A stretch of DNA of 32,909 nt, from contig JABWCN010000048.1 in assembly GCA_013359135.1 (NCBI GenBank), positions 1-32,909 of the forward strand, written 5' to 3'. Below, one piece after another: positions 14,393-31,136 of this stretch (position 1 is its first letter; every line of letters begins with the position of its first letter). The stretch is from Pseudobdellovibrionaceae bacterium (GTDB lineage: Bacteria > Bdellovibrionota > Bdellovibrionia > Bdellovibrionales > Bdellovibrionaceae). A program made the translations under genes and the position numbers. Below the pieces are notes generated by a model. The model searched no databases and had not been told where the DNA came from. It saw only the letters and a list, made by a program, of their open reading frames with translations.

Positions 14393-14854
14393 ATCGTATT
14401 TTTCTCTGGTTAATATAGCGATTGTATCAAAATAGAATGCAAAGACTGAAGAAAATGTTTTATTTTTTTTAATACTTTACTAGTCATATCATATTGAATC
14501 GAGCACTCATTTTTATTTCTTAGAATGAGTAAATATAAATATCTCAAATTGAACCAGGCCACTTTTTTTAACATTTTTAGTTTTTTAATAATAACAGCCT
14601 GAATTTAATGAAATTGGCAAACTAGGTCTTTTTTTGTTCAGTGTCTGACAATTTTTGTCTTAATAATGTTAAAAATTCAAAAGAAGATAAATCATAGTAA
14701 ATAAGCTAAATTTTTTGATTTGAGATCTAACTTAATAGTTTATAAGAATTAATAAAATTTTATTTTGACCTTTTTTTTACACGAGTTGTTGGCGCTTTTT
14801 GCAGAGATGTTAATAAGTGAATTTACTGTCATGAAAAAAGTTTGTGGAGGCAAA
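14393..14854. other. Divergent promoter region
   Basis: About 460 very AT-rich bases between two divergent exported-protein genes. The best promoter on the plus strand is TTGAGA (14719-14724), 16 bp, TATAAG (14741-14746), giving a leader of about 100 nt for the kinase-like gene. I found no clear counterpart on the minus strand and no RNA gene. Confidence 0.45.
14719..14746 (+). promoter_or_regulatory. Candidate promoter of the exported kinase-like gene
   Basis: TTGAGA and TATAAG each match the sigma-70 consensus at five of six positions and are 16 bp apart. Confidence 0.45.
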
Positions 14855-17137
14855 ATGAATTTTGAACAAATTTCTAAAAAATCGTCATTAAAAATACTAT
14901 TATTTTTTTTCATTACGACGGTTCAAATTTCAGTTTCAGCGAATGAAAATAGATTGCCACTTTTGCGCTACTGGATTCAAGATCGTTTTGTGCGGAGTGT
15001 AGCATTGGGAAAAAACGATCAGGAATTACTAGTTTCTCTAGAATCTCTTATTAATAATGTTGATACTTATAAAAAAAAATATCTTTTTGAAAATGAAGTT
15101 ACAACCTCAGTTGAAATAGATAAGTATCGTTATCACTTTCTTCATCCTCAATTTTCATCACAAAATGAAGTGGAAAGATTTATAAAAGGTGATATTCCAC
15201 AGAATTTGAATTTGATTACTTCGGGTGAAAGCAGTGTAACTTATTTAAACGAAATAATTGGTGCTTATAAAAATATTCTGGATCATGAGTTTGAATTTCC
15301 ACCAAAAAGTTTTAAAACAAATTTTTTGAGTTTTTTTGGCGTTATAAAGCAAAGAAATGTAACCGTCTTTGATTTGTTGTTTGAAAACTCGAGAGACTCT
15401 GAGCTTGCAATAAAAGCAATTAAAAAGATGAATGATCAAGAAAAATTAGCCTTATTGCATCAGTTTAAAGGGCAATTAAGCTCTGTTTTTGATAAAGTAA
15501 AAAATAGTGGATCAGAGATATTACGAGAATCAAAGCTTACAATTCCAGATGCTAAAATGAAAAGATTTTTAGAAATTGTTTTATCATTGTATTTTGCATC
15601 TTTGCCAGATGATGCGGTTTGGGATTTAATATTTTTACAGATGGAAAGACCAGAAGTGCAAACTCGACTTGAAAGATTCAAGTTACTAAGTCGAAGCGTT
15701 GGGCCTCATTTTCATAAACTTTTTCAAATAGCAGGCCGAATGGATGGAATCCCTGACTCCTTGAGAAATATTTTTATTACCTTTGAAGAGGGACTTCCTC
15801 CCTCAAATTGGGGAATTATTAATAAACAGATTCAAGAATCTAAATTTGAAGAATTTGATATAATAGCAGTTGATTCTGAGCCCATAAAGGTTGCCTCTAT
15901 GTCTCAGATTCATAAAGCTAAAGTACGTTTTAAAAAAACTAACGAAGAAGCGTATATTGCTTTAAGAATTTTAAAACCAGGAGTTGAAGAGTGGTTAAAA
16001 AGAGATGAGTTCTTTTTTCATAAACTGATTGATGTTATTTCTAAAGATGAGATTTTAGGACCAATAACAGATGGAGTTAACTTTAAGCAGTTATTAAGAC
16101 AAATTATTGTCCTAGCCAACGAGGAAAAGAATTTTCGTGATACTGTTGATAATGAAAATTTGGCCACCAAAGAACTGGTTACCGAAAAAGTAATAAATGA
16201 CGAAGTAAAACTAAAAATCAAAGTCCCAAAGGCTTTTTTAAGTACAAATAATGATACTCTTATGGCCATGAGATGGGCTGAAGGGAAAACCTTAGACAAG
16301 TTGGCTATGGATAACTCAAGCCATGCCAAAGGTATTGCAGAGTCACTTTTTCAACATTGGATGGAAAGTGCACTTTTTGGGAGTGGGTTTATCCATGCCG
16401 ATCTACATACGGGGAATGTTCTTGTAAGGAAAGTTAATGAACTTGAATATGATGTTAATGTAATTGATTTTGGTATGACAGGTAGGTTCTCAGAAGCTAA
16501 TCAACAATTATTTTACCTATTAGCGATGTCGAGTGTTACAAACAATCATACGATAATGGCAAGAGCTATTTGGGAGCAGGCAGTACATAAGCCAGATATT
16601 TCTTTGAATGAATTTACGGAGATGATTGTAGAGAGGTTTCCGCCAACTAACGATCCTAAGTTAGCGGCAAATTTTGAAAAAGCTTTATTTTTTGCTCAGC
16701 AAAATGGTTTTGATTTTGACGATAACTTAATGAAGTTAGTCAGAGGATATGCGGCAGCAAGGGGGCTTCTATATAGTACTAATTCAGAGTTAAAAGTAAA
16801 AGATGTTATTATTAAAATGATGCAAGAAAATCCAAGTAAAGGTTTAAAAGTTTTATCTAGTATTAAATATATAGATAAGAAAGATATTATTGGTATTTTA
16901 AACTCATTTGCAAACAATCTAAGATATAAAGTTGAGAATGTAACAGTTGCTGATGCGGTTAATGCCGTAGCTACTGGAACAGAACTTGTTAAAGGTGTAT
17001 TAGGAGGACTTCTTTCCAGAGGAAAAAAATTTCTTGGTGAGGTAACTAAAGAAAATCCTAAGCCATCACAGGTAAATAAGCCAAAAGAGAAGCAAAACTT
17101 AGAGTCTTTTATTTGTTTAGGACATTATAGTATTTAG
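14855..17137 (+). CDS. Exported ABC1/UbiB-like atypical kinase
   Basis: 760 residues from ATG 14855, set by GGAGG 5 bases upstream; a longer frame from 14765 has no site. The N-terminus is a Sec signal peptide: basic MNFEQISKKSSLK, core ILLFFFITTVQI, cleavage near SVSA-NENR. About 240 unrecognised helical residues follow, then an ABC1/UbiB kinase-like domain: K288-L-F-Q291 (usually KxGQ), A-loop ASMSQIHKA (347-355), IALRILKPG with R371 where the family has Lys, EEKNF (423-427), WAEGKTLDKLA, HADLHTGN (514-521) and DFG (538-540). Catalytic Asp and metal-binding residues are thus kept. Known ABC1 proteins are cytosolic or organellar membrane ATPases/kinases linked to quinone synthesis; an export signal is unusual. 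It converges with the next gene, leaving only 11 bp. Confidence 0.85.
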   Translation: MNFEQISKKSSLKILLFFFITTVQISVSANENRLPLLRYWIQDRFVRSVALGKNDQELLVSLESLINNVDTYKKKYLFENEVTTSVEIDKYRYHFLHPQFSSQNEVERFIKGDIPQNLNLITSGESSVTYLNEIIGAYKNILDHEFEFPPKSFKTNFLSFFGVIKQRNVTVFDLLFENSRDSELAIKAIKKMNDQEKLALLHQFKGQLSSVFDKVKNSGSEILRESKLTIPDAKMKRFLEIVLSLYFASLPDDAVWDLIFLQMERPEVQTRLERFKLLSRSVGPHFHKLFQIAGRMDGIPDSLRNIFITFEEGLPPSNWGIINKQIQESKFEEFDIIAVDSEPIKVASMSQIHKAKVRFKKTNEEAYIALRILKPGVEEWLKRDEFFFHKLIDVISKDEILGPITDGVNFKQLLRQIIVLANEEKNFRDTVDNENLATKELVTEKVINDEVKLKIKVPKAFLSTNNDTLMAMRWAEGKTLDKLAMDNSSHAKGIAESLFQHWMESALFGSGFIHADLHTGNVLVRKVNELEYDVNVIDFGMTGRFSEANQQLFYLLAMSSVTNNHTIMARAIWEQAVHKPDISLNEFTEMIVERFPPTNDPKLAANFEKALFFAQQNGFDFDDNLMKLVRGYAAARGLLYSTNSELKVKDVIIKMMQENPSKGLKVLSSIKYIDKKDIIGILNSFANNLRYKVENVTVADAVNAVATGTELVKGVLGGLLSRGKKFLGEVTKENPKPSQVNKPKEKQNLESFICLGHYSI

Positions 17138-17148
17138 TTTTGCAATAA

Positions 17149-18255
17149 TTACTTATGACCACCAGATAGCTGTGAATCTTTTTTCATAGAAGTATCACTA
17201 ATTTCTGAGCTAGGATTTGGTTCCATTTTCTTAAAAGCTGAAAAAAGAGATTCTATTAATTTACATTCTTCTTGTTGTTGTTTGTCGATATCTTTTTTAC
17301 TTTTAAGTTCTTTGCAATAAGTTAACAAACTAACATTATCTAAATATGAAGCACTTTCCATCTTTTGTGTGCTTTGCAGGTCTTCAATAATAAGACTTAA
17401 ATTGGCCGTAAACTCATTATAATTTGTGCTATTTATACTAATGACTCTAGATTTATTTTGTTTTTGAGATGATTTTTCCAAATACTCTATAAAGATTTTA
17501 GCACATTGTTGTGCTATATTTTTAGCATTTGAATTGACACAAAAATTAGGTGTATTGCTTTCGCCAATTTCAATTACACCGAAAGTGGAACATTTGAATT
17601 GTTCCTTTGTGCAAGGAGCTCCAATAGATGTTATAGGTCGTTCACAAATAGGAAGTTTATCTTTTATTATCAAACGAGATGGGTGGCCACCGAAAAGGCA
17701 GCTAAATGTTTCTTTAGCTGATTTTGGTTCCTCTACTTCAAGTTCTTTGTTGCTTTCTTTATAGACCCAGGAAGCTCCTTCAAACACAGCAATACCACCT
17801 GCGGTTTCCACGACAATTTTAGAAAGTTTACGAGACTTTATATATTGTGCCAGCCGACTAAAAGACTTCATAAGAATTGGGGATAACGCTCGAGCTACCT
17901 TTATCACTACAGCGCCAGCTTCGATAATTATGACCACTGGATTAGCTTGGGCTTGATTTAGGTTTAATGCATAGAAATATGGCCAAGAAGTATTTTTCAG
18001 CTGCTTGGACTTGTTAGAACGAAGGGGGAGAATAGATTCTTTCGGTAAAGTTTGAAGATTTTCAAGTATATAGGCTAAGTGAACCAATGTTAGCAGATAG
18101 ATGGTCCTATCTGCTTCCTTTAGAGATCTAAAACTCTGTTCAGATAAAAAGGGTGAGGCTTTCAGAGGTTGGGGGTATTTTTTAAGATCATGAGCTAAGC
18201 TGTGCTCAGCTAGAACAAAAAAAGCAAGAATTTTCTTTATCCACAGATATTTCAT
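17149..18255 (-). CDS. Secreted Cys-containing protein, unrecognised
   Basis: 368 residues with a signal peptide (MKYLWIKKILAFFVLAEHSLA, cleavage before HDLKK). Two hydrophobic stretches follow, NPVVIIIEAGAVVIKVARAL and IVVETAGGIAVFEGASWVY, which could insert into or lie on a membrane. The central part has a Cys-rich module: ETFSCLFGG, LPICERP, APCTKEQFKCSTFGVIE, NFCVN and QQC; paired Cys of this kind suggest disulphides in the periplasm. The spacing C-x(5)-C-x-x-F-G recalls modules I associate with other Bdellovibrio secreted proteins, but I cannot name a family. It lies 126 bp downstream of the 1016-residue gene on the same strand and may share its transcript. Confidence 0.75.
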   Translation of the reverse strand: MKYLWIKKILAFFVLAEHSLAHDLKKYPQPLKASPFLSEQSFRSLKEADRTIYLLTLVHLAYILENLQTLPKESILPLRSNKSKQLKNTSWPYFYALNLNQAQANPVVIIIEAGAVVIKVARALSPILMKSFSRLAQYIKSRKLSKIVVETAGGIAVFEGASWVYKESNKELEVEEPKSAKETFSCLFGGHPSRLIIKDKLPICERPITSIGAPCTKEQFKCSTFGVIEIGESNTPNFCVNSNAKNIAQQCAKIFIEYLEKSSQKQNKSRVISINSTNYNEFTANLSLIIEDLQSTQKMESASYLDNVSLLTYCKELKSKKDIDKQQQEECKLIESLFSAFKKMEPNPSSEISDTSMKKDSQLSGGHK

Positions 18256-18381: not shown

Positions 18382-21300
18382 TTATTTTTTATCTACATAC
18401 TCAAATATTTTATAATAAGAAAATGTTTGAACAAGGCCATTGACGCATTCATTTAACAGTTCATTAACTCTAACTACTGTGTCAATTTCATCGGCGTTAA
18501 AAGTTTCTTTTTGTTGAGAAAATTTTAAAAAAAGATCACTGAAAATAACTTGTTTTAAATAGCTATCTATAAATAAATACGCTCTACCATAAGGATCAGA
18601 AGTTGATTCTATAATTTTTTTTAATTTTTCTTCAAAAACTAAATTAAAACTTTTTCCATATGAGATCCAAGAGGTTGGATCCTTTGGGTGACTCACTATA
18701 TAGAGCATAAAAGCCAGTTTCATTTCAGCACTTTTAATGTCAGCAATAAATCTTGGAGATATTTTTTTTAGTATTTCAAGGTAGATCTTAATTTCTTGCT
18801 GATAAGAATTGTAAATTCCTATTTCTAGAAAATTGTCTGGACTTGAGGTTTTAACTTCTTGTTGAAGCGAGTTATAAATTCCTTCAGAGGAATTACTTTC
18901 TGAAAAAAATTTTTCTTTAGAAAACAAAACTGGGTAAAGTTTAGTTACTAAAAGTTTATTGAAGTTACTTTCTTCGGAACGCAGAAAAGTGTTAATTTCT
19001 TTAGTAACTGTATTCTTCCAAAAAGTTTCTAAATTTGCAACCGCATTATCACCTTTAAACTGAGCATTGATATTTTCTTTAATAAAGTAAACTAGGTTTT
19101 CGTAGCGGTTATTATTATAGTAGAATGGTTTTGTATTGTAGTAGTTGATGCCTGAATATTCCTCACAAGGATTAAAAGATCCTGTATCTACAATTCTTGG
19201 AGGGTTGAAACTAGTAGACCAAAATGGAATCTTATCAAAGACTGAGCTACTAAGTATTCCAGTATCAATTTTTTGCCCACTAAATGTATATCTAGGACCG
19301 CATGCTGCACTTATTAAGTACTTTTCAGGAAGGTTTCTGTAGTACACTCCATACAGGCTTTCACTTTTTGAGATAGACTTAAAATTGATTACGTCATCTG
19401 TTTCAAGAGACTTAATGAACATTTCTCCAGCTTTTAAGTTCTCTGAATAATTGAGAATTTTTTTTAATTCTCCTAGGCTTGCGATATTATTATTCTTATC
19501 TGAAAGTTCTGGATTATATATTTTTGCACGATTGAATGTCTCAAAAGCTTTTGCAGAATATGATTCTTTGAATTTTTCTTTAAGTTGTTCTTTTTCTTCT
19601 TTGCTGATCCTAAGTTTATCTATTCTTTCAAACTCATATTTAACAGAAGGAGCTAATGGAGTTTGATTATCAAAAACAGATAAATAATAAAGCATGTTTT
19701 TGTAAAGTTGTATAATTGAAGCTTCAACATTTGAAGAAGACTTTGTGATTTTTGAATTGTTGATCTCTTTTTTTAGTAGAAAATAGACTTTTGCAACAGT
19801 GGAAGCTACAGTAGTAGAGACGTTTTTGTAGTTCAGTTGATCAGTGCCAATTCCATAAAAAGGATAGTTTTCAAAATTATTGCTTTTTGTATTATTGATT
19901 TCAGAAACTAGATAAGCATAAAATTGATTACTAGCTTTATAATGGTTACTAAAACTTTCAAAATAGGAACTCCATGAGCTTAAAGAACTAGTTACATTTT
20001 TAAGCCAAAAGTTTCTCCAGTGGTTTAAATTTTGATGAAACTTTGATAGTGTATTGGGATAGCTAGCTTCGAGATCACAATAAGGTGAATACTGGGAATT
20101 AAGTTCAAAAGTCCTCTTTAACAAATCATATGAGGTTTTATCGAACGCATTTTTATCAAAAGAAGTTGTACTTTTAAGATATTCAATACAGTTTTGAGGA
20201 ATTTGTGGCCTTAATATAAGTTTTTGTACTTTTTCCAGAGAATTTAATGCTTCAACCCCATGAACCATTTTTTCATAAATAGGTTCATAGATATGTAGTA
20301 TAGGATCATTAATCTCTAAAAACATGAATGCATGGGCAGCAGAAGAAAGTAATCTAGACTGAGGGATGTATGATCCCAATTTTTTAATAAATTGAATAGA
20401 CTTTAAAACGAATCGTTTTACGGCAAAACTTTGTTTGGAAATAGCTTTTGAAGTTATTTTACTAATCTCATTTTTTGTTGTTGGAATAACAAACGATTGA
20501 ATTGCGATAGTTGTCCATGAAGAAAGTAAATGAGGAATGTAATCGATAATTTTTCCACGCGTTACCCAACGGTCATAAGCTTTTTGATAAGCGGCTAAAG
20601 GAGTATATCCCTTTTCTGCAATCATTTCATTGATTTCTTCAGGAGTAGAAATGAGTGCTCTTGCATAATAGTTTATATCAGGGTCATTAGATAAGTCTGT
20701 ATATATAGTACTGATTAAAAATCCAAAGGCAAACCCCGAATACATTTTAATTTTATTAAGTTGGACAGAAGTTATTTTTCCATCAGTTAGTGATTCAGCT
20801 TTTCGTCTAATTTTATTCCATTCCTCAATTTTCTTCTTATTTAACTTTGCCGACCCAAAGAGATCAAATTTTGGATCAGAATTTGAGCGTTCGACGGCTA
20901 AAGTTGTCATTAGTTCTTGAATTTTTTTCTCGTTTTTTAACCACCCGTACCTAGTTGAAATATGATCTAAAAATGAATTTGAAATTTTAGATCCAGCTAT
21001 AAAAAAAGAAAAACTAACTTGGGCATTTACACTTAAGATGTTATTTGTAAAAAAATTTTTTAATCGCTCCACATCTGTCTCTGGATTTGTTAGAATTAAT
21101 CTAATCACTTGGAAAAGGCTTCCAATATAGAAACTAGCTGCGGCAGGTGTAAAGTCATTCTTTATAAATTCAACTGATCCATTTACCGTTTTACTTGGAA
21201 TTTCCTTTATCGTATTAAATGAAGATTTTAAGAAACCTTTTTTTTCAATTTCATTTGGACTATCGTTTTTTAGAAGTTCTTGGTTTGACGAATCAATTAC

Positions 21301-21432
21301 AATAACAACATCTTTTTCTGAACTACTAGTTTGAGCAAAGACCATATCAGTAGAGCTTATCAGAACGATGATAATTATTAATTTTAGCTTTTGTAAGAGG
21401 ATACAGGAAAAAATTGTTTTCATTTTACTCAT
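18382..21432 (-). CDS. Large secreted protein, unrecognised
   Basis: 1016 residues with a signal peptide: MSKMKTIFSCILLQKLK, core LIIIIVLISS, cleavage after DMVFA before QTSSS. The start could be either of two ATGs three codons apart (21432 or 21423); neither has a ribosome binding site. The mature chain looks mainly helical, with two weakly hydrophobic stretches (AAASFYIGSLFQVIRLIL and SGFAFGFLISTIYTDL). A short motif GIYNS-QQE-K occurs twice 21 residues apart near the C-terminus (nt about 18788-18882). No catalytic motif is recognised. It is divergent from the coiled-coil and AAA+ pair, across a 250-bp promoter region, which suggests shared control. Likely envelope or released; function unknown. 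Confidence 0.78.
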   Translation of the reverse strand: MSKMKTIFSCILLQKLKLIIIIVLISSTDMVFAQTSSSEKDVVIVIDSSNQELLKNDSPNEIEKKGFLKSSFNTIKEIPSKTVNGSVEFIKNDFTPAAASFYIGSLFQVIRLILTNPETDVERLKNFFTNNILSVNAQVSFSFFIAGSKISNSFLDHISTRYGWLKNEKKIQELMTTLAVERSNSDPKFDLFGSAKLNKKKIEEWNKIRRKAESLTDGKITSVQLNKIKMYSGFAFGFLISTIYTDLSNDPDINYYARALISTPEEINEMIAEKGYTPLAAYQKAYDRWVTRGKIIDYIPHLLSSWTTIAIQSFVIPTTKNEISKITSKAISKQSFAVKRFVLKSIQFIKKLGSYIPQSRLLSSAAHAFMFLEINDPILHIYEPIYEKMVHGVEALNSLEKVQKLILRPQIPQNCIEYLKSTTSFDKNAFDKTSYDLLKRTFELNSQYSPYCDLEASYPNTLSKFHQNLNHWRNFWLKNVTSSLSSWSSYFESFSNHYKASNQFYAYLVSEINNTKSNNFENYPFYGIGTDQLNYKNVSTTVASTVAKVYFLLKKEINNSKITKSSSNVEASIIQLYKNMLYYLSVFDNQTPLAPSVKYEFERIDKLRISKEEKEQLKEKFKESYSAKAFETFNRAKIYNPELSDKNNNIASLGELKKILNYSENLKAGEMFIKSLETDDVINFKSISKSESLYGVYYRNLPEKYLISAACGPRYTFSGQKIDTGILSSSVFDKIPFWSTSFNPPRIVDTGSFNPCEEYSGINYYNTKPFYYNNNRYENLVYFIKENINAQFKGDNAVANLETFWKNTVTKEINTFLRSEESNFNKLLVTKLYPVLFSKEKFFSESNSSEGIYNSLQQEVKTSSPDNFLEIGIYNSYQQEIKIYLEILKKISPRFIADIKSAEMKLAFMLYIVSHPKDPTSWISYGKSFNLVFEEKLKKIIESTSDPYGRAYLFIDSYLKQVIFSDLFLKFSQQKETFNADEIDTVVRVNELLNECVNGLVQTFSYYKIFEYVDKK

Positions 21433-21680
21433 ACTAAAATTAACAGCAAAGTACGGACCATAAGTTTAATTTAATGTTTTCTTGGAAAAAGTTATTATAA
21501 ATCAAAGAGTTAAATAATTTTGAAAAAAATACTGTATTGAATTAAGACAAGGACTACAAAATGGGTTATTCAAATGTGTAATAGATTATTAGAAGGCTTT
21601 TATATTTGATTATGAATGGCTTGCTATTTGCTCCTAGGCTAAATGTTAGTAAAAATATAGAAAAACATAAGGAGAATATT
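21433..21680. other. Divergent promoter region of the 1016-residue and coiled-coil genes
   Basis: An AT-rich 248-bp region. A good Shine-Dalgarno (AAGGAG, 21669-21674) marks the right-hand gene. I see no promoter with both boxes near consensus and correct spacing and no RNA gene. Confidence 0.4.
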
Positions 21681-23543
21681 ATGTCATTAGTTTCCAGAAG
21701 AGTGTCATTATTAATAACAGTTGTAGTGCTAACTACGAATTCCTACTCACAGGTTGTTAGAACTGTCGATGCTGGATCAAAGACTACAATTTCCGCAAGG
21801 GAGCAAATAGCACAAAGATACGAGCAACAATTTTCTACAAGTCAGATTTTTAGAAATTTAACAGCAGCCCAAAAAGAAGTTCTAAAGCAAACCTTAGCTT
21901 CAGATGGAAATAAGACATTGAGCTCAGTTTATAAATCAGTTATGGAAGCTGAGAAATTTTCTAAAGAAAGAGATGTTATTGAAATTTCACGATTAAGAAT
22001 GGAGATTATGACCAAGTTTGCGAATGTAGATATATTTGATCCATCAACAGTTCGTGAGTTGGGGCAAAGTGATGCTTATACAATAATCCGTTTGGTTTAT
22101 GAAATGGATCCTTTAAAGTTACCATCAGCACAGTCTAAGGATTTAGCAAAATCATTTCTTGAACAATTAAATACAGAATTAGCAATATCTGAAAATCCTG
22201 ATTATTCAAGAGTTGTAACTGATGTTCTGATGTACATGGAAATGGGAGCAAATCAAAAAATTACTATCGAACGAAGCGATTTGTATGAAGCTATTAGTGG
22301 AAAGAAAAAAGATGCTGTTATTGATTTATTTAAAGGTAATAACGATGTTAGGACTATTACCTTAGGTGAGACAGGACTTGAAGTTAACTTATCAAAGAAT
22401 GTTGCAGCTGAATTACAAAAACAAGCTGAATTAGAAGTTATAAGACTAACTCATTTGGCGGAAGGAACTCCGACCGAAATTCTTAAGAATCTAGAGAGTA
22501 CATCTCGTAAGGGGTTGGATAATACCTTAGAAAGAATGAAGGCTTTTGAAAAAGGAAATCACTTATTAGATAGAAAAGATACAAGTTCAAGGGCAAAAGA
22601 AACTAACTTAGAAACAATAAAGACATATGATCAGTTATTAGCTGTAATGAAGCAATATAATGCAGCTATTAATAGTAAATCACTTTCTGGCAAGATATCT
22701 AGATTTTTTTCTGACAGTAAAGTTGGAAAAATGATCCCAGGTAGTGAAACTATGGCTAAGAAGTTTGACAAAATGGATGATGCTAATATGAAAAATAGAA
22801 CCATTCGTGAAAAAATCGAGATGGTAAAAATGTCATTGGAAACATCTATTGCAACTGTACGAGCTGATAATGAGCAATTAAATAAGATGATGGATGAAGC
22901 TTATAAGTTAATTAGAGATCTACAGCCAGAGCTAGCTTATTACAAATATGTAAATGACCTATTAGCCATTAAACTGGAGCAGTTGAAATCTTCAGAGCAT
23001 CCTCATGATAAGCAATTAGCTGAAAATCTTGAAATTCACGTTGCTAGAACTATGATGACTAAGTTCAATGCAGTTATTAACCAAGTGGTAACAATGCGAA
23101 AAGGAATCAAGAGCTTTGAGTTAGACATAGGTCTTGGAATTGCGACTATTACTCAAGTTCAAATTTTACTTGAGTCTATTTTGCCTGATATGTACATAAC
23201 TGAGACTTCAAGACAAGCTAACTTAATGACTCAAAGATTAGGTAAATCAGCAGAGGCAGCTAGAAAGTTTCATGAAGAACTAAAAGAACAGCAGCATAAA
23301 CTTCAAATTCAGTCTATGGAAAAGCAAGTTGAGCTGGCTAAGCAGGTTTTTACAGACCCTGTCGCTTTTGAAAGAAGAATGACAGAAATGGCGACGGCCT
23401 TCGAGAACTACAAAAAAGGAATGTCTGAAGCTTTCAAAATTCAAACAGAGCATGCAGCTAAAATGACAGCATTGCACAATCGTGAAAAAGGCCAAACTAG
23501 TGGTTTTCAAATTGGACGTGAAATTAATAACGGTGGGAATTAG
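21681..23543 (+). CDS. Secreted coiled-coil protein
   Basis: 620 residues from ATG 21681, chosen because AAGGAG lies 6 bases upstream and a signal peptide begins there (MSLVSRRVSLLITVVVLTTNSYS, cleavage before QVVRT). A frame back to 21606 has no such support. The mature protein is almost entirely helical and highly charged, with long heptad-like stretches in the second half (for example EELKEQQHKLQIQSMEKQVE and FERRMTEMATAFENYKKG). Such helical proteins often act as scaffolds or adaptors. It lies 26 bp before the AAA+ gene, which has its own ribosome binding site, so the two are very probably one operon and the proteins may be partners. No family is recognised. Confidence 0.82.
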   Translation: MSLVSRRVSLLITVVVLTTNSYSQVVRTVDAGSKTTISAREQIAQRYEQQFSTSQIFRNLTAAQKEVLKQTLASDGNKTLSSVYKSVMEAEKFSKERDVIEISRLRMEIMTKFANVDIFDPSTVRELGQSDAYTIIRLVYEMDPLKLPSAQSKDLAKSFLEQLNTELAISENPDYSRVVTDVLMYMEMGANQKITIERSDLYEAISGKKKDAVIDLFKGNNDVRTITLGETGLEVNLSKNVAAELQKQAELEVIRLTHLAEGTPTEILKNLESTSRKGLDNTLERMKAFEKGNHLLDRKDTSSRAKETNLETIKTYDQLLAVMKQYNAAINSKSLSGKISRFFSDSKVGKMIPGSETMAKKFDKMDDANMKNRTIREKIEMVKMSLETSIATVRADNEQLNKMMDEAYKLIRDLQPELAYYKYVNDLLAIKLEQLKSSEHPHDKQLAENLEIHVARTMMTKFNAVINQVVTMRKGIKSFELDIGLGIATITQVQILLESILPDMYITETSRQANLMTQRLGKSAEAARKFHEELKEQQHKLQIQSMEKQVELAKQVFTDPVAFERRMTEMATAFENYKKGMSEAFKIQTEHAAKMTALHNREKGQTSGFQIGREINNGGN

Positions 23544-23569: not shown

Positions 23570-26527
23570 ATGAGAAAGTTAGTATTATTTTTACATACTC
23601 TTATATTGGTAGTAGTTTTTAACTCAAATATAGCGCTTTCTCAACCCTCACAAAAAGAAGAGGAAAGGGTGTTCTTTTCCTCTTCTTTATTCCTTTATTT
23701 TTTAAGAGAAAATTCAAAAATTTCAGTTTCTCTTGTTAATAGCAAAGAAAATAAGAGTCATAAAATATTTGGACCAGGAGAAGTCAAAAGTATAACCCAT
23801 TTCGCAAATCAAGGAGCGGGAATTGAATCGATTAAACGAATTGTAGTTAAAGATTCCAAATTACCCTATGCTCAGTCTATTTCAACATGGTTTTCTATAG
23901 ACACAGTTGATGGAGTTTTATTTTTATTTAAAAAAGGAGAGTATGTATATACTTATACTTTCCCAGACATTAAAGATCTTGAGCTTATTTCAGCGGGAAG
24001 TTTTTTTCAGAGATCAGAACGCAAATATAGCATCGTTGTGTCATTAAAAGAAAAAAATGGAAAAAGTGTAACTTATATTGTGGATAGCGACTCAGGCTCA
24101 GTAAAGTTAGTTGATAATAAGTTTCGTTATTTAAGTGAGAGTGAAAGTTCAGGCTCTTTTCGCCAGACTTTTTCATACAATGAAGAAAAGCAAGAAATTG
24201 ATTTTGGTCATGGTGATAGAGTTAGATTGTCTCAGTTAGAAGTAAAATCCAAACTTAAGGTCGAGGAATACTCTTTTTCTAAAGAGAGTCAAGTAAATCA
24301 ATTTAGAAATGAGGTCCTTGGATCAGGTCAATTATCAATAAAACAAGTAGATGGGTCAGAACTTAGTATTCCTAAGCCTAGGGAGCTTACCACTGAAGAG
24401 TCGATTAATATACATGGTAAGGTTTCTTTCCCTATTGAGATAACTCACAACAATAATTCATTCAAAATAACTTTAGAGAAAGAAGGAATTTTCGTCACTA
24501 GGCAATCTGACAAAGTAAGAGTAAAAGTTTCAATTTTACAACAGCTACCATCTGTAGAAGGACATAAAGCTGGAGGTTTTGTTGTTGAAGATGGAATTCT
24601 GAAACATCCTAATCTATTAAGGCAAGTTGATTTAGGCAGAGGAAAAGATAGTTATGATGTTTTTAAGGTGGAGGCAAATTATGTTCCTACTGAAGAAAAT
24701 AAGGAAGCATTGGAATGGGTTTTAGAAAGTTTCAAAGACTTTCGTAAAAGGACTTCAAGAAGTATGTCACCCATTTCAGCAAGAAAATTGTATGTAGACA
24801 AAGTTCTTTCCCAGATGACCGGCCCAGAGAGTAGCTCTTCGGTTTTGGTCAGTGAGTCTAGTGATCGTGATCTTATTCTTTCAGAGGTATCAAGAAGGCT
24901 TCCAAGAACTTGGAAGGTATTAACCTTTGATCCTTCTGGATTTGGGGATCTTAGCATGTCTGGACAGAAAGGTGAAAAAGCAGGAAAAGTTTCTACTGCT
25001 ATTAAGTCAGTACCCATAGTCCTAGCTGCTCCCAAAGTAACAAATCTTGCTGGAGTTGGATCCGCACAAGGCTCATCCAGTGATGTTATGAACTTATTGA
25101 CACCTGACATAACTGATGAGTCTTCAGGCTGGAGACTTATGGGAACTGTCGCAGATAGTAATATACTAAGAGAAAAATTTACAGATCCAGATTTAAGAAA
25201 TAATCTTTCAACTACAATTTTGCCTGACTTATCTTTGGTTGAGGTCAAAGAACATTTGAAACAGTTTTTAGGCCATACTTTAACGAAATTTACAATCAGT
25301 GAGGAAGTTCTTGATTATCTGATAGCTAAAGCAAATCAAGCAAGGAGAACGGAATCAGAGCCAGGTCGCAGTCAGAATTTTTTAACAACTATTGCTAGGA
25401 AAATTGAGTCTGGGGCAATCACAAAAGAAGAAGTAAATAAAGCTTTAAACTATCATTTTAATATTAGTCCTCAACTTATTTCACCTGAAGGTCAAAATGC
25501 AATGCTAGATAAATTTGTTTTTAAAGCTAAAAAGAATTTATCTGGTCATGGACATTTAATTTCGAATTTTTTAGAGGGTCTTGAAATTGGTTTTGCAGGG
25601 TTACATTCAGAAAAAGGTGCTATGCAGACACTTTGGATTGAGGGTCCCCCGGGAGTGGGAAAAACTGAGTTTGCTAAACAAATGGCTAAAGCTATGAATG
25701 TTCCTCTCGGATATATTGATATGAATCAATATTCATCAGCAAGCCGTCAATCATCTGGAGACTTATTAGCGGCGATAGCAAAAAAACTAGAAAAAAATCC
25801 TAACTCTGTCATTTTGTTGGATGAGGTTGAAAAAGCTGATTTTACAGTTCTACAAGGGCTATTAATGATCTTTTCTAATGAGTATTTTGAATATCCCGTA
25901 GATGATGGTACCGGAAAAAAAGAAATGAGAAAAATGGATTGTAATGGAGCCAGTTTTGTTCTTACTTCTAATGGTATTGGCGATATGGTTTTACGTTGGT
26001 TAATGAAAAAAATTGAAAATGATCCTAAATTTGATCATATTAGCAGTGAGGAATTGAACAAAGAGTTTTTCAAAGAATTTTCAAGAGAATCATTGATAGA
26101 AATGTTAACAACAGCTGGAATGCTACCTAAAATTCCCAATGGACTACCAAGTCCATTGATAGATAGGGTTGATCTGATGGTTGCATTTCCACCTAATTTT
26201 GACGGTATGGTTGGGCTCTTAAAGATTAAATTACGAGAAATGAAAAAAAGAGCCTATGACAGCATGGGAGTTAAAATTAAACTGTCATCGGACCAGTTAA
26301 ATGAGGAGCAAATCATTAAAGAAATGGTAATGGAGGGACGAGCTTCCCAACAATCTGTTAGGACTCAAATTCGTGAGTTTGAAAAGAGAGTACAAGGTTC
26401 AATTGCACTTATTAGAAGAAGCGAACCCGAGCAGATGTCACGAGTTAAATTTTATCTAATTGATCCAAAAAGAAAACAGTTCCAAAGATTTTCTAACAAA
26501 TGTCTAGCAGGATATGTGTTTAATTAA
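23570..26527 (+). CDS. Exported ClpA/ClpB-related AAA+ ATPase
   Basis: 985 residues; GGAG lies about 6 bases before ATG 23570. Signal peptide MRKLVLFLHTLILVVVFNSN with cleavage near IALS-QP. Residues 30-370 are beta-rich and unrecognised. Residues about 376-590 follow the ClpB first ATPase domain in outline (LVSESSDRDL at the Walker A position, VPIVLAAP at Walker B, then GVGSAQGSSSDVMNLL and MGTVADSNILREKF), so both motifs are lost. Residues 640-945 are a second domain with Walker A GPPGVGKT (692-699), Walker B VILLDEVEKA (747-756), sensor LTSN (798-801), arginine finger R866 (PLIDRVD) and a possible sensor-2 R931. The GYVG pore loop of Clp proteins is missing between MNQYSSASR and DLLAAI. 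Clp proteins are normally cytosolic; this one appears exported, so how it would obtain ATP is unclear. Confidence 0.87.
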   Translation: MRKLVLFLHTLILVVVFNSNIALSQPSQKEEERVFFSSSLFLYFLRENSKISVSLVNSKENKSHKIFGPGEVKSITHFANQGAGIESIKRIVVKDSKLPYAQSISTWFSIDTVDGVLFLFKKGEYVYTYTFPDIKDLELISAGSFFQRSERKYSIVVSLKEKNGKSVTYIVDSDSGSVKLVDNKFRYLSESESSGSFRQTFSYNEEKQEIDFGHGDRVRLSQLEVKSKLKVEEYSFSKESQVNQFRNEVLGSGQLSIKQVDGSELSIPKPRELTTEESINIHGKVSFPIEITHNNNSFKITLEKEGIFVTRQSDKVRVKVSILQQLPSVEGHKAGGFVVEDGILKHPNLLRQVDLGRGKDSYDVFKVEANYVPTEENKEALEWVLESFKDFRKRTSRSMSPISARKLYVDKVLSQMTGPESSSSVLVSESSDRDLILSEVSRRLPRTWKVLTFDPSGFGDLSMSGQKGEKAGKVSTAIKSVPIVLAAPKVTNLAGVGSAQGSSSDVMNLLTPDITDESSGWRLMGTVADSNILREKFTDPDLRNNLSTTILPDLSLVEVKEHLKQFLGHTLTKFTISEEVLDYLIAKANQARRTESEPGRSQNFLTTIARKIESGAITKEEVNKALNYHFNISPQLISPEGQNAMLDKFVFKAKKNLSGHGHLISNFLEGLEIGFAGLHSEKGAMQTLWIEGPPGVGKTEFAKQMAKAMNVPLGYIDMNQYSSASRQSSGDLLAAIAKKLEKNPNSVILLDEVEKADFTVLQGLLMIFSNEYFEYPVDDGTGKKEMRKMDCNGASFVLTSNGIGDMVLRWLMKKIENDPKFDHISSEELNKEFFKEFSRESLIEMLTTAGMLPKIPNGLPSPLIDRVDLMVAFPPNFDGMVGLLKIKLREMKKRAYDSMGVKIKLSSDQLNEEQIIKEMVMEGRASQQSVRTQIREFEKRVQGSIALIRRSEPEQMSRVKFYLIDPKRKQFQRFSNKCLAGYVFN

Positions 26528-27223: not shown

Positions 27224-28882
27224 TTATAAATCGGCGATTTGTGCACGAACTGTAAGAATATTTTGCGCTGTCATGCTGAGCTCATCGACGCCAATAGATA
27301 TTAAATAGGGCATGATTTCTGGGTGGTGAGCAATCGATCCACACACACCAACGTGTAGTTGATTTTTCTTTGCTTCCTGAACTATGAATTTTAAAAATCT
27401 CTGAAAGCCTTCATGAGTTGGAGATGAAATTGTTTGCAATTGATTGTTCATTCGATCACAGGCATTTGAATATTGAAATAAATCGTTGGTGCCAATGCTG
27501 ATAAATGTAACTTCATCAGACACTTCTTTTAATATCCATGCTAACGAGGGAACTTCCATCATCACACCAATATTTATTTTTTTTCCGATCTGAATTTTAC
27601 TTTGCTCTAGTTCTGTCTTTACTGTGTTAAAAATTTTCTTTGCTTCTTTGATTTCTGAAATTGTGGAGACCATTGGAAACATAATTCCTAAGTCATTACA
27701 GAAATTTGAAGCTCTTAAAATAGCTCTTAATTGAGTCTTAAAAAGTTCAATTTCCTTTAAACAAAGTCTAATTCCGCGGACACCAAGAAATGGGTTTTCC
27801 TCTTTCTGAATGCGTATGTAGGGTGCTTCTTTATCCCCTCCAATATCCAAGGTTCTAATAATAATTCTTTTATGGCCTAAGTATTGAAATACAGTACGAT
27901 AAGTTTCATACTGTTCTTCTTCTGAGGGAGGAGTAATACGATCAAGAAATAAAAATTCAGTCCGATAAAGGCCAATAAATTCAGCATCGTTTTTTATTAC
28001 AGAGTCTATATCCAAAGGGCCAGAAATGTTAGCTCCAAGAGGAACTAATTTTCCCATTTTAGTTTCAGTTTTTTTTCCTTTGAAACTAAAAAGTTGTTTT
28101 TGTTTAAATTTGAAGAGAGATACTTTTTCTTCAAAACTTTTCACCTCATTTATATTAGGATTTAGAATGACCTCTGAGTTTTCTGTATCAAGAATTAAAT
28201 CTGTATACTTTGAAAGATCCAGTGTTTCTAGTTCGTGTGCTCCGACTAGACATGGAATTTCCATAGACCTTGCTAAAATAGAAGAATGTGATTGAGGACT
28301 TCCCTTTGATAGTACAAAACCAAGTACTTTAGTTTTTTCAAAACCTAAAATATCTGATGGGGTAAGATCTTCAGAAATAATAATAGAGGGGCGAGAGTCA
28401 TTTAGTTGAGAATAACTAAAATATGAAAAATTCAATTCGGGATTAATAATATAAAATAAAACCCGATTAGAAATATCTTCAAGATCCAAGACCCGTTGCT
28501 TCAGATAAGAGTCTTCAATTTCAGAAAACATATTTTTAAATAAAGAAATGACTTCCTCATAAGCTACATATGCAAATTTATTCTCATGATTAATTTTAGC
28601 AAGCGTTTGTTCTTTAACTTCTGGGTCATCTATAAGGGATTGATGAACTTCTATGATGTCTATTTTTTCTTTATCTATAGAAGTAAATTTGTTTTTTAAA
28701 TTTTCAAGATCTTGTAAAGATTTATAGAGGGCTTTTTCAAATAAAAGAGTTTCCTTTGACGGATCAAAATCAGAAAACAAGTGATGACTTCTGTTAATTT
28801 CTGAATTGCCTTTTTTGAATATGAAAATAGGTCCATGAACCATGCCAGGTGCTGCTTTTTGTCCTATTATTTTTAATGACAT
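27224..28882 (-). CDS. ptsI: PTS enzyme I (phosphoenolpyruvate-protein phosphotransferase)
   Basis: 552 residues, slightly short for EI (about 570). It takes phosphate from phosphoenolpyruvate and passes it to HPr. The phosphorylated His is H199 in GSPQSHSSILARSMEIPCLVG. The PEP-binding barrel is marked by LYRTEFLFLDR, RTLDIGGDKEAPY, NPFLGVRGIRLCL, MMEVPSL and FISIGTNDLFQYS; the catalytic Cys is in HVGVCGSIA. All key residues are present. It lies 11 bp after ptsH in the order EIICBA-HPr-EI-DTW. The active-site context (KGSPQSHS) differs a little from the usual GGxTSHS. Confidence 0.95.
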   Translation of the reverse strand: MSLKIIGQKAAPGMVHGPIFIFKKGNSEINRSHHLFSDFDPSKETLLFEKALYKSLQDLENLKNKFTSIDKEKIDIIEVHQSLIDDPEVKEQTLAKINHENKFAYVAYEEVISLFKNMFSEIEDSYLKQRVLDLEDISNRVLFYIINPELNFSYFSYSQLNDSRPSIIISEDLTPSDILGFEKTKVLGFVLSKGSPQSHSSILARSMEIPCLVGAHELETLDLSKYTDLILDTENSEVILNPNINEVKSFEEKVSLFKFKQKQLFSFKGKKTETKMGKLVPLGANISGPLDIDSVIKNDAEFIGLYRTEFLFLDRITPPSEEEQYETYRTVFQYLGHKRIIIRTLDIGGDKEAPYIRIQKEENPFLGVRGIRLCLKEIELFKTQLRAILRASNFCNDLGIMFPMVSTISEIKEAKKIFNTVKTELEQSKIQIGKKINIGVMMEVPSLAWILKEVSDEVTFISIGTNDLFQYSNACDRMNNQLQTISSPTHEGFQRFLKFIVQEAKKNQLHVGVCGSIAHHPEIMPYLISIGVDELSMTAQNILTVRAQIADL

Positions 28883-28893
28883 AGTAGAGCCAG

Positions 28894-29154
28894 CTAAACC
28901 GAAAAATGGTTGTCGATAAGAGTTGCAATTTTTTGAATAGCTTCTTCTGCGTCTGGACCATCAGCTTTAATAATGACCTCAGAACTTTGGATAATTCCTA
29001 AAGTCATTAAGCTCATGGCAGACTTAGCATTTACTGTTTTTTGATTAAAAATAACTTCAATTTTACTTTTAAAAGAAGTAGCAACTTTGGCTAATTGACC
29101 AGCTGGTCTTGCATGTAAGCCTTCAGGATTTAAGATAGTTTTTTTCATTTCCAT
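28894..29154 (-). CDS. ptsH: Phosphocarrier protein HPr
   Basis: 86 residues from ATG 29154 (AGGAG 8 bases upstream; a TTG one codon earlier is less likely). HPr carries phosphate from EI to the sugar-specific EIIA domain. The active-site H14 is in GLHARPAG, and S45 lies in NAKSAMSLMTLG, the position phosphorylated by HPr kinase in many bacteria; no hprK is in the window. Size and sequence are typical. It sits between the EIICBA and EI genes with very short gaps, a classic operon. Confidence 0.95.
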   Translation of the reverse strand: MEMKKTILNPEGLHARPAGQLAKVATSFKSKIEVIFNQKTVNAKSAMSLMTLGIIQSSEVIIKADGPDAEEAIQKIATLIDNHFSV

Positions 29155-29165
29155 CAAGTAGACTC

Positions 29166-31136
29166 CTATTTCAAATGAGTATTATTTGAGATATCTATTT
29201 TATAAAATTCATTCGGTAAATGCACCACTAGCTCAGGATTTGTAAAAACGATAGGGGTTAAGTGAGACTTAGCTTTCTGTTTTACTAATGCTAAATCAAA
29301 CTCTATGAGTTTTTGACCCTTATGAACTGCGTCTCCTATAGAGACAAAGGGGGTAAAACCTTCACCTTTCATTTTAACAGTATCAATCCCTATATGTATA
29401 AGAGCTTCCATTCCATCAGTTCTTTTTAAGATAATAGCATGGTTAGTTGGAAACAAGTGCATGACTTCTCCATCAAAAGGAGCTTGAATCAAACCAACAG
29501 AGGGGTCAATCAAAAAACCTTCTCCCAAAACTTTTTCAGCAAAAGTTTCGTCAGGAGTTTGGTTAATATGTAAAATATCTCCTTGAATTGGAATAAGAAA
29601 ACCATTGTATTCATTGGTTGAAAGACTTTTATCTGGTTCAATTTCTTTTGAGTCTTTTAAATTACTTTTCGATAAATCTACAGTAGATGAGTCTAATCGT
29701 ATAATAGATTTGATTTCTTCTTTTATTTTATCTGACTGTACACCAAAGACAATTTGAAAATTATTCCCCGTATTCATTGTTCCGGCAGCACCCAGGCTTT
29801 TGAAGTTATCTTTTTTTACAAGGCTTGCCTGCTTTACTGTTACCCGTAACCTAGTGATGCAGGCATCAATGCTGTCTATATTCTCTTTTCCACCAAGAGC
29901 TAACAGAATCTGTCTTGCTTTTTCATTCTGTGAATTACTTTCTCTTTTTTCAGGTGGCTGTGTGATATTTTCGACGATTTCTCGTCCGATAGTCTTGAGG
30001 TTGAAAAGACCGATAAGAAAATAAAAAGTTCCAAAATAAGTTAAACCTATCAAAGGGCCAACAATGAGCCACAAAGATAAACTATTCTTTTGATTAAAAA
30101 AACCAACGATAAAATCAATTAATGAAGCAGAAAAAGTATAGCCCAAATGAATATCAAATTGGGAGGTTAAAATGCCAGATAAAAATGCTAATATCACATG
30201 AACTACAAAAAGAATTGGGGCTACAAAAATAAAAGCAAATTCAATAGGTTCAGTAATTCCAGTAATAATAGAGGTAAGTGCTGCCGAAAGCATAACTCCT
30301 CCGACAAGTTTCCTTTTTTCTGAGGGGGCTCTTAAGACCATAGCTAGTGCTGCCATAGGGAGACCAAACAGCATAATAGGAAATTCAGAAGCCATAAATT
30401 TTCCAGCGGCTGGATCTCCACCGAAGTATCTGGCAGATTCACCTCTTAAAATTTGTCCTGCAGAATTGGTGTATTCACCAAATTCAAATAAAAAAGGTGG
30501 ATAATAGACGTGGTGTAGGCCTAGTGGTATCAAAAGTCGTTTTCCTGCAGCATATAGTCCTGGTCCCCAATCTGAGGTCATTACTTCATGTCCAAAATGT
30601 TGAATTCCATGTTGTATTGGAGGCCATGTGACTCCTAGTGCTAATCCTAGAATTAAACAAGAGCCTGCACTTAGAATAGGAATAAGTCTTTTTCCAGAAA
30701 AAAATCCAAAGATGGGATTCAATTGGGTTTCGTGAAAACGATTATATAAATAAGCAGCCAAAGAACCTGTGGCAATACCACCAAAAACCCCCGTGTTGAT
30801 GGCTAATTCCCCAGGAGAAAATCCAGAAATAACTTTTAAAACATTGAATAAAGTAAAGTAACCTACAGCAGCAGAGAGCGCTGCAACTCCAGCACCTTGA
30901 GAAAAACCAACTGCCACACCCATGGCAAATATAACTGGTAGTTGTTCAAAAATAGAAATACCACCACTGAATAAAATTTCACCCAGGTTTTTAATAATGG
31001 AAATTTCAATAAAATTATCTTTTAGAATTCTTCCCATAGCCACTAGTAGACCAGCGGCAGGTAATACGGAGACAGGAATCATTAATGACTGTCCGACTTT
31101 TTGTAGTAAGGTAAATATTTTATCTAAAAATTTCAT
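29166..31136 (-). CDS. PTS transporter EIICBA, glucose/N-acetylglucosamine family
   Basis: 656 residues with domains in the order C-B-A. The membrane EIIC part spans about 1-385 (GLHHVYYPPFLFEFGEYTNS, DPAAGKFMASEFPIMLFGLP, ITGITEPIEF). EIIB is about 405-480 with phosphorylated C426 in DACITRLRV. EIIA is about 510-650 with IQAPFDGEV and phosphorylated H581 in EALIHIGIDTVK; H566 (TNHA) is the supporting His. It imports and phosphorylates a hexose. NagE and Gram-positive PtsG share this domain order, so I cannot choose between glucose and N-acetylglucosamine; the latter would fit a bacterium degrading peptidoglycan or chitin. GGAG precedes the ATG by about 6 bases. First gene of the operon. Confidence 0.92.
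   Translation of the reverse strand: MKFLDKIFTLLQKVGQSLMIPVSVLPAAGLLVAMGRILKDNFIEISIIKNLGEILFSGGISIFEQLPVIFAMGVAVGFSQGAGVAALSAAVGYFTLFNVLKVISGFSPGELAINTGVFGGIATGSLAAYLYNRFHETQLNPIFGFFSGKRLIPILSAGSCLILGLALGVTWPPIQHGIQHFGHEVMTSDWGPGLYAAGKRLLIPLGLHHVYYPPFLFEFGEYTNSAGQILRGESARYFGGDPAAGKFMASEFPIMLFGLPMAALAMVLRAPSEKRKLVGGVMLSAALTSIITGITEPIEFAFIFVAPILFVVHVILAFLSGILTSQFDIHLGYTFSASLIDFIVGFFNQKNSLSLWLIVGPLIGLTYFGTFYFLIGLFNLKTIGREIVENITQPPEKRESNSQNEKARQILLALGGKENIDSIDACITRLRVTVKQASLVKKDNFKSLGAAGTMNTGNNFQIVFGVQSDKIKEEIKSIIRLDSSTVDLSKSNLKDSKEIEPDKSLSTNEYNGFLIPIQGDILHINQTPDETFAEKVLGEGFLIDPSVGLIQAPFDGEVMHLFPTNHAIILKRTDGMEALIHIGIDTVKMKGEGFTPFVSIGDAVHKGQKLIEFDLALVKQKAKSHLTPIVFTNPELVVHLPNEFYKIDISNNTHLK

What the first reader, a model, noticed from the sequence alone, without database searches (positions are those of the whole stretch)
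23570..26527. A Clp-type AAA+ ATPase with a secretion signal, a dead first domain and no pore loop
Seen in the sequence: a Sec-type signal peptide, a C-terminal ClpA/B-like domain with intact Walker A (692-699), Walker B (747-752) and arginine finger (R866), and upstream a stretch that follows the ClpB first domain in outline but has lost Walker A and B. The GYVG pore loop, which grips the substrate in Clp unfoldases, is missing. Known: Clp proteins work in the cytosol, where ATP is present; eukaryotic torsins are exported ClpB relatives without an aromatic pore loop. Inference: this may be a bacterial exported remodelling ATPase of torsin-like character, or an effector that acts where foreign ATP is available, such as in a prey or host cell.
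Basis: partly seen in the sequence, partly recalled or inferred. Interest (0 to 1): 0.85.

Follow-up and report, generated by a model that had tools for sequence, protein, structure and literature searches.

The report
Exported Clp-type ATPase with Cys tag
Bacteria related to the predator Bdellovibrio make a family of ring-forming, ATP-driven Clp-type machines that carry a secretion signal and a conserved cysteine tag at their end, which is surprising because there should be no ATP outside the cell; the one in this window is a member whose first motor is dead.

Summary
ORF 23570-26527 (985 aa) has a Sec-type signal peptide, a degenerate ClpA/B first AAA+ domain and a second domain with intact Walker A, Walker B, sensor 1 and arginine finger. 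The AF2 model aligns over residues 381-969 with ClpB, ClpA and HSP101 (Z 23-26). It is not an oddity of one genome: 20 of 369 phylum genomes encode exported Clp-like double-AAA+ proteins. The 19 placed in a tree separate from ClpA/B/C (100/100); all 19 lack the D2 GYVG segment. A strict signal-peptide rule finds 12 of 17 and 0 of 59 ClpA/B/C ORFs. Most relatives have an intact D1; it is fully dead only in the window and its same-genus homologue. The same tag ends 26 of 26 examined exported ABC1/UbiB-like kinases of Bdellovibrionaceae, one encoded in this window, and follows the signal peptide of exported MoxR ATPases. Torsin membership fails on three defining features; threading by the window protein is unlikely. 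Best reading: an extracytoplasmic ATP-driven remodelling ring routed by a new terminal tag. Location, ATP source and activity are untested.

The parts
23570..26527 (+). Exported Clp-like AAA+ ATPase, 985 aa
23570..23641 (+). Sec-type signal peptide, residues 1-24 (predicted cleavage ALS|QPS)
   Evidence: strict rule; signal-like N-termini also in homologues
23642..24679 (+). Mature N-terminal beta-rich region, residues 25-370, no Clp_N domain and no known family found
   Evidence: no Pfam hit; secondary structure of low- to medium-confidence model
24710..25402 (+). Degenerate D1 AAA+ module, residues 381-611
   Evidence: AF2 model aligns with ClpB/ClpA/HSP101 D1; alignment
24851..24871 (+). 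Lost D1 Walker A, residues 428-434 (SESSDRD)
   Evidence: aligned with GDPGTGKT of G022 homologue
25016..25036 (+). Lost D1 Walker B, residues 483-489 (IVLAAPK)
   Evidence: aligned with IIWFADE of G022 homologue
25484..26422 (+). Intact D2 AAA+ module, residues 639-951
   Evidence: Pfam AAA_2 1.4e-10; ClpB NBD2 crystal structures Z 22.7-24.6
25643..25666 (+). D2 Walker A, residues 692-699 (GPPGVGKT)
25730..25765 (+). Place of the D2 pore loop, residues 721-732: GYVG-bearing segment deleted
   Evidence: deleted in 19/19 exported members, present in 9/9 ClpA/B/C rows
25808..25825 (+). D2 Walker B, residues 747-752 (VILLDE)
26165..26167 (+). D2 arginine finger R866
   Evidence: invariant in the 12-row alignment
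26360..26362 (+). D2 sensor-2 arginine R931
   Evidence: nearly invariant
26501..26524 (+). C-terminal Cys tag, residues 978-985 (CLAGYVFN)
   Evidence: Cys in 16/18 complete exported AAA, 26/26 exported kinases, 0/42 ClpA/B/C
21606..23543 (+). Exported coiled-coil-like protein, 645 aa as listed (signal peptide from MSLVSRRVSLL); 26 bp upstream, conserved with the AAA
   Evidence: orthologue adjacent in G001; only these 2 of 141 order genomes
14765..17137 (+). Exported ABC1/UbiB-like kinase with C-terminal tag CLGHYSI (true start likely an internal Met before the signal peptide)
   Evidence: Pfam ABC1 2.6e-25
17149..18255 (-). 368-aa exported Cys-rich protein, conserved in the same cluster
   Evidence: 27% identical orthologue in G001 cluster
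18382..21432 (-). 1016-aa protein with N-terminal signal and hydrophobic segments, conserved in the same cluster
   Evidence: 27% identical orthologue in G001; weak partial relatives in 14 further order genomes

Best explanation
The protein is an extracytoplasmic, ring-forming Clp-type ATPase. It is made with a Sec signal peptide, exported and cleaved. A terminal Cys tag (C-x-x-hydrophobic-[F/Y/L]) then directs it to a shared site or partner, probably through its exposed thiol. D2 binds and hydrolyses ATP with an arginine finger supplied by its neighbour in the ring. D1 keeps the ClpA/B fold but is catalytically dead and serves as a structural or binding tier. With both aromatic pore loops gone, the ring is unlikely to thread polypeptides hand over hand; it more likely uses ATP-driven ring opening and closing to remodel or disassemble an envelope partner, the co-encoded coiled-coil protein being the first candidate. 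Shown by computation: signal, fold, motif states, family, tag. Inferred: oligomer, ATP use outside the cytoplasm, tag function, substrate. Unknown: where the ATP comes from; prey or lysate ATP is a guess.
For: Signal peptide in the family (12/17 by a strict rule, the rest signal-like; 0/59 ClpA/B/C ORFs). n-regions are mostly positive, which predicts N-in/C-out. D2 catalytic and ring residues conserved: G692, G695, K698, E752, K755, N801 and R866 invariant in 12 rows, R931 nearly so. D1-D2 fold by AF2 and VIA, Z 23-26, including PTEX HSP101 6e10 at 25.5. Single branch 100/100. GYVG segment deleted in 19/19. C-terminal Cys in 16/18 complete members, the only mature Cys in 7 of these, and in 26/26 exported ABC1 kinases, the only mature Cys in 18 of 26; strict-motif background 4/294 and 5/207 ORFs. 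Coiled-coil gene adjacent in both genomes.
Against: No ATP is expected in a bacterial periplasm, and no TLC-type ATP/ADP carrier was found in 27 of 28 genomes tested. The AAA and the exported kinase do not co-occur beyond chance across the phylum (3 genomes of 20, about 3.6 expected). No biochemistry. Identity to relatives outside the genus is 17-22%. The window's own tag (CLAGY) is a loose fit and its mature protein has a second Cys.
Confidence: 0.5

Rival explanations
1. HSP101/PTEX-like translocon motor: the exported Clp ring threads other proteins across a membrane outside the producing cell, for instance into prey, as Plasmodium HSP101 does at the parasitophorous vacuole.
For: HSP101 is a precedent for a ClpB-type motor acting outside the parasite cytosol at the vacuole membrane (PMC7355975) and its structure is the second best VIA match, Z 25.5. 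Several bacterial relatives keep D1 Walker motifs and the D1 pore aromatic, e.g. GTKFRG, GTKYVG.
Against: HSP101 threads with NBD2 pore-loop tyrosines and two active NBDs (PMC7355975); all 19 bacterial members lack the D2 GYVG segment, and the window also lacks an active D1 and the D1 aromatic. No M-domain. No pore protein identified.
Confidence: 0.15
2. Secreted effector: the tagged exported enzymes (Clp-like, UbiB-like kinase, MoxR) are released into a prey or host cell and use its ATP.
For: Three unrelated ATP-dependent enzyme families in this lineage carry signal peptides and a shared terminal tag while keeping ATP-site residues. The family contains predatory Bdellovibrio (G010 contig length equals the Tiberius genome). 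It solves the ATP problem.
Against: Lifestyle of the window organism unknown; most genomes of the phylum lack the AAA (20/369); no secretion machinery or delivery shown.
Confidence: 0.2
3. The N-terminal hydrophobic stretch is an uncleaved anchor and the ATPase works in the cytosol.
For: ATP is there. No experiment excludes it.
Against: Positive n-regions predict N-in/C-out; AxA-type sites follow; Cys tags in sister proteins sit a few residues after the predicted cleavage site, which only makes sense after cleavage; neighbours are exported too.
Confidence: 0.12

Closest known systems
ClpA (HSP100 class I AAA+ unfoldase of ClpAP)
   Same: D1-D2 architecture without M-domain, D2 Walker/sensor/Arg-finger set; best NCBIfam hit (2.4e-16) and similar D1 lid length
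   Different: Signal peptide, no Clp_N domain found, GYVG segment deleted, no IGL/IGF loop in the window protein, C-terminal Cys tag, dead D1 in this member
Plasmodium HSP101 (PTEX)
   Same: ClpB-type motor outside the parasite cytosol; fold match Z 25.5
   Different: HSP101 has two active NBDs, Tyr pore loops and an M-domain (PMC7355975)
Torsins
   Same: Exported compartment, no aromatic pore loop (own knowledge)
   Different: Torsins have one AAA+ module, no arginine finger of their own and a GCK sensor 2 (own knowledge); this protein has two modules, R866 and R931
Bacterial UbiB / ABC1 kinases (for the neighbour 14765-17137)
   Same: HxD..N and DFG-type motifs kept
   Different: Signal peptide, Gly of KxGQ replaced, usual ATP-site Lys mostly Arg, C-terminal Cys tag

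Membership tests
Clp/HSP100 class I (D1-D2) AAA+ | Two tandem AAA+ modules of ClpA/B fold | tested here: met
   VIA Z 23-26 over residues 381-969
Clp/HSP100 class I (D1-D2) AAA+ | Both nucleotide sites intact | tested here: not met
   D1 Walker A and B lost in window and G001; intact in most relatives
Clp/HSP100 class I (D1-D2) AAA+ | D2 GYVG pore loop | tested here: not met
   Segment deleted in 19/19
ClpA | Clp_N domain and ClpP-binding IGL/IGF loop | tested here: not met
   No Clp_N hit; no IGF/L in window; some relatives have an IGF string
ClpA | Falls within the ClpA clade | tested here: not met
   Exported set is separated from ClpA/B/C by a 100/100 branch
ClpB / HSP101 | Middle domain in D1 lid | tested here: not met
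   D1 lid + linker 119-126 residues versus 248 in ClpB
Torsin | Single AAA+ module | tested here: not met
   Two modules
Torsin | Own arginine finger absent, supplied by LAP1/LULL1-type partner | tested here: not met
   R866 invariant
Torsin | GCK sensor 2 | tested here: not met
   R931 in S-V-R context
Torsin | No aromatic pore loop | tested here: met
Exported Clp-like clade described here | Sec signal peptide | tested here: met
Exported Clp-like clade described here | Actual location outside the cytosol | not testable with these tools
   needs fractionation or fusion reporters

The most novel reading that the evidence does not exclude
Bdellovibrionota have an extracytoplasmic, ATP-driven enzyme set (Clp-like rings, MoxR rings, UbiB-like kinases) sorted by a previously undescribed terminal Cys tag, C-x-x-hydrophobic-[F/Y], that works at the mature N-terminus or the extreme C-terminus; a compartment with usable ATP (own envelope or prey) must therefore exist.
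Probability: 0.35. Interest if true: 0.93.

Novelty: new variant of a known kind. Interest (0 to 1): 0.8.

Why it matters
Clp-type rings are taken to be cytosolic because they need ATP. A conserved bacterial clade of them with signal peptides and selected ATP sites, alongside exported UbiB-like kinases found in most Bdellovibrio-like genomes examined, implies ATP-dependent work outside the cytoplasm. The shared terminal tag makes the question testable: one can tag a reporter, follow where it goes during predation, and ask what reads the cysteine. The window protein also shows a natural series from two live motors to one.

Tried and rejected
A first AF2 job with a 3-row alignment gave pLDDT 41 and was discarded. 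The genome-contig scan returned only an ordinary Sphingobacterium Clp. Plasmid search gave only ClpA-type partial matches. The idea that the exported kinase and AAA form an obligate pair was tested and not supported across the phylum. An ATP/ADP carrier as ATP source was sought and not found. Defence-system models match only generic AAA+ stretches. The C-terminal SCIKIFNFA of the truncated MoxR gene in contig C12 was first read as a tag, then rejected because a transposase gene follows directly. Torsin chains did not appear among the listed fold matches; that is no evidence either way. Literature searches found no report of these proteins or the tag, within an open-access library only.

Full report
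What is there. The ORF at 23570-26527 encodes 985 residues. Its start MRKLVLFLHTLILVVVFNSNIALS|QPS is a textbook Sec signal by a strict rule. Pfam sees only D2 (AAA_2 1.4e-10, residues 689-837), and the best NCBIfam model is ClpA (2.4e-16, far under its cut-off).

Homologues. Among 60 relatives only two full-length homologues stood out: one in the same genus (35% identical) and one in another genus of the family (26%). The second has an intact D1 (GDPGTGKT, WFADE), which shows that the window's D1 is a decayed true AAA+ module and not a look-alike. A profile of the three found eight further exported double-AAA+ proteins in the phylum, and L018, fetched, proved to be a ninth. A 12-row profile found 20 genomes of 369. 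The weakest of the 20 scores 346 bits and the best ordinary ClpA 333, so the border is narrow there, but signal peptides and absence of GYVG agree with it where the ends are present.

Family features. The 19 exported sequences in the tree are separated from ClpA/B/C by a 100/100 branch. In all 19 a segment of about 12 residues holding GYVG is missing from D2, and in about half of them the D1 pore motif K-[YFW]-x-G is kept. D1 is fully dead only in the window and G001; G132 is partly degraded; G037 and G050 have an altered D2 Walker A (GQAKT). The strict signal rule is passed by 12 of 17 and by none of 59 ClpA/B/C ORFs; the other five look signal-like by eye. The rule is home-made, not SignalP.

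Structure. With 28 rows AF2 reaches pLDDT 73.5 overall and mostly above 80 over residues 371-950. The ClpA rows in the alignment help the model towards that fold, so the match (Z 23-26) confirms consistency more than it discovers it; the sequence profile of exported members alone reaches ClpC at 1e-95.

The tag. Sixteen of 18 complete members end in a Cys 5-19 residues from the C-terminus, mostly C-x-x-hydrophobic-[F/Y/L], against 0 of 42 distinct ClpA/B/C with a Cys in the last 15; in seven of them it is the only Cys of the mature protein. The exported ABC1/UbiB-like kinases of the family, one of them at 14765-17137, show it in 26 of 26 (RCEMVFN, SCQRIF, CLSFY and so on), although the preceding C-terminal part is poorly conserved; it is the only mature Cys in 18. 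Background for the strict motif is 4 of 294 and 5 of 207 ORFs. Kinases of other families in the phylum also have a signal and, in most, a C-terminal Cys, though with a looser motif. In G001's cluster eight exported proteins carry C-x-x-F-Y just after the signal peptide, and exported tandem-MoxR ATPases of the family carry RCEDLF, NCSEIF, KCEALF at the same place. A motif that sits a few residues inside either mature end is best explained as a linear ligand or attachment site read after signal cleavage; this is inference.

Neighbourhood. Five exported proteins are shared between the window and G001: coiled-coil-like, AAA, kinase, 368 aa and 1016 aa. The coiled-coil gene lies directly upstream of the AAA in both (gap 26 bp in each) and was found in no other of 141 order genomes. 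The G022 copy is solitary. Across the phylum the AAA and the kinase occur independently.

Who carries it. One family member, G010, has a contig of 3,988,594 bp, the published size of B. bacteriovorus Tiberius (PMC3539863), so the family is Bdellovibrionaceae; the window's genus itself is unnamed and its lifestyle unknown.

How it works. D2 has what is needed for ATP turnover in a ring. Loss of both aromatic loops argues against processive threading in the window protein. I favour an ATP-driven conformational remodeller outside the cytoplasm (0.5), with an effector role (0.2), a translocon motor (0.15) and a cytosolic misreading (0.12) as rivals. ATP supply is the main unsolved point; a TLC carrier is absent in 27 of 28 genomes.

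Known or new. The fold is known; a secreted bacterial clade with these features was not found in the open-access literature searched. HSP101 is the functional precedent for a ClpB motor outside the cell (PMC7355975).

Noticed in passing
window 14765-17137; L106, L117-L133, L205-L222: Exported ABC1/UbiB-like kinases (signal peptide, C-terminal Cys tag) match in 66 of 369 phylum genomes at E<=1e-50, including most of the Bdellovibrio-like genus. KxGQ is altered and the usual ATP-site Lys is mostly Arg.
   Followed up: partly
L033 and L055 (G001 contig C115): A run of exported 490-660 aa proteins without a clear Pfam family, several apparently paralogous, each with C-x-x-F-Y within a few residues after the signal peptide.
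   Followed up: partly
L067:2937-5180 (own genome, contig C12): Exported tandem-MoxR AAA+ ATPase with RCEDFY after the signal peptide; the second MoxR domain is cut off and a DDE transposase gene follows. A relative in another genus is 82% identical, which suggests recent horizontal transfer.
   Followed up: partly
L208, L209, L211-L213: Some exported kinases of family f12 look like lipoproteins (LISCSE, VSCGH, SSCSM) and still keep a C-terminal Cys.
   Followed up: no
L162, L163 (G037, G050): Two exported Clp-like members have a changed D2 Walker A (GQAKT) but an intact D1 Walker A, the reverse of the window protein.
   Followed up: no
window 27224-31136: PTS enzyme I and a glucose/GlcNAc-type IIABC transporter side by side, perhaps unexpected for a strict predator lifestyle.
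   Followed up: no
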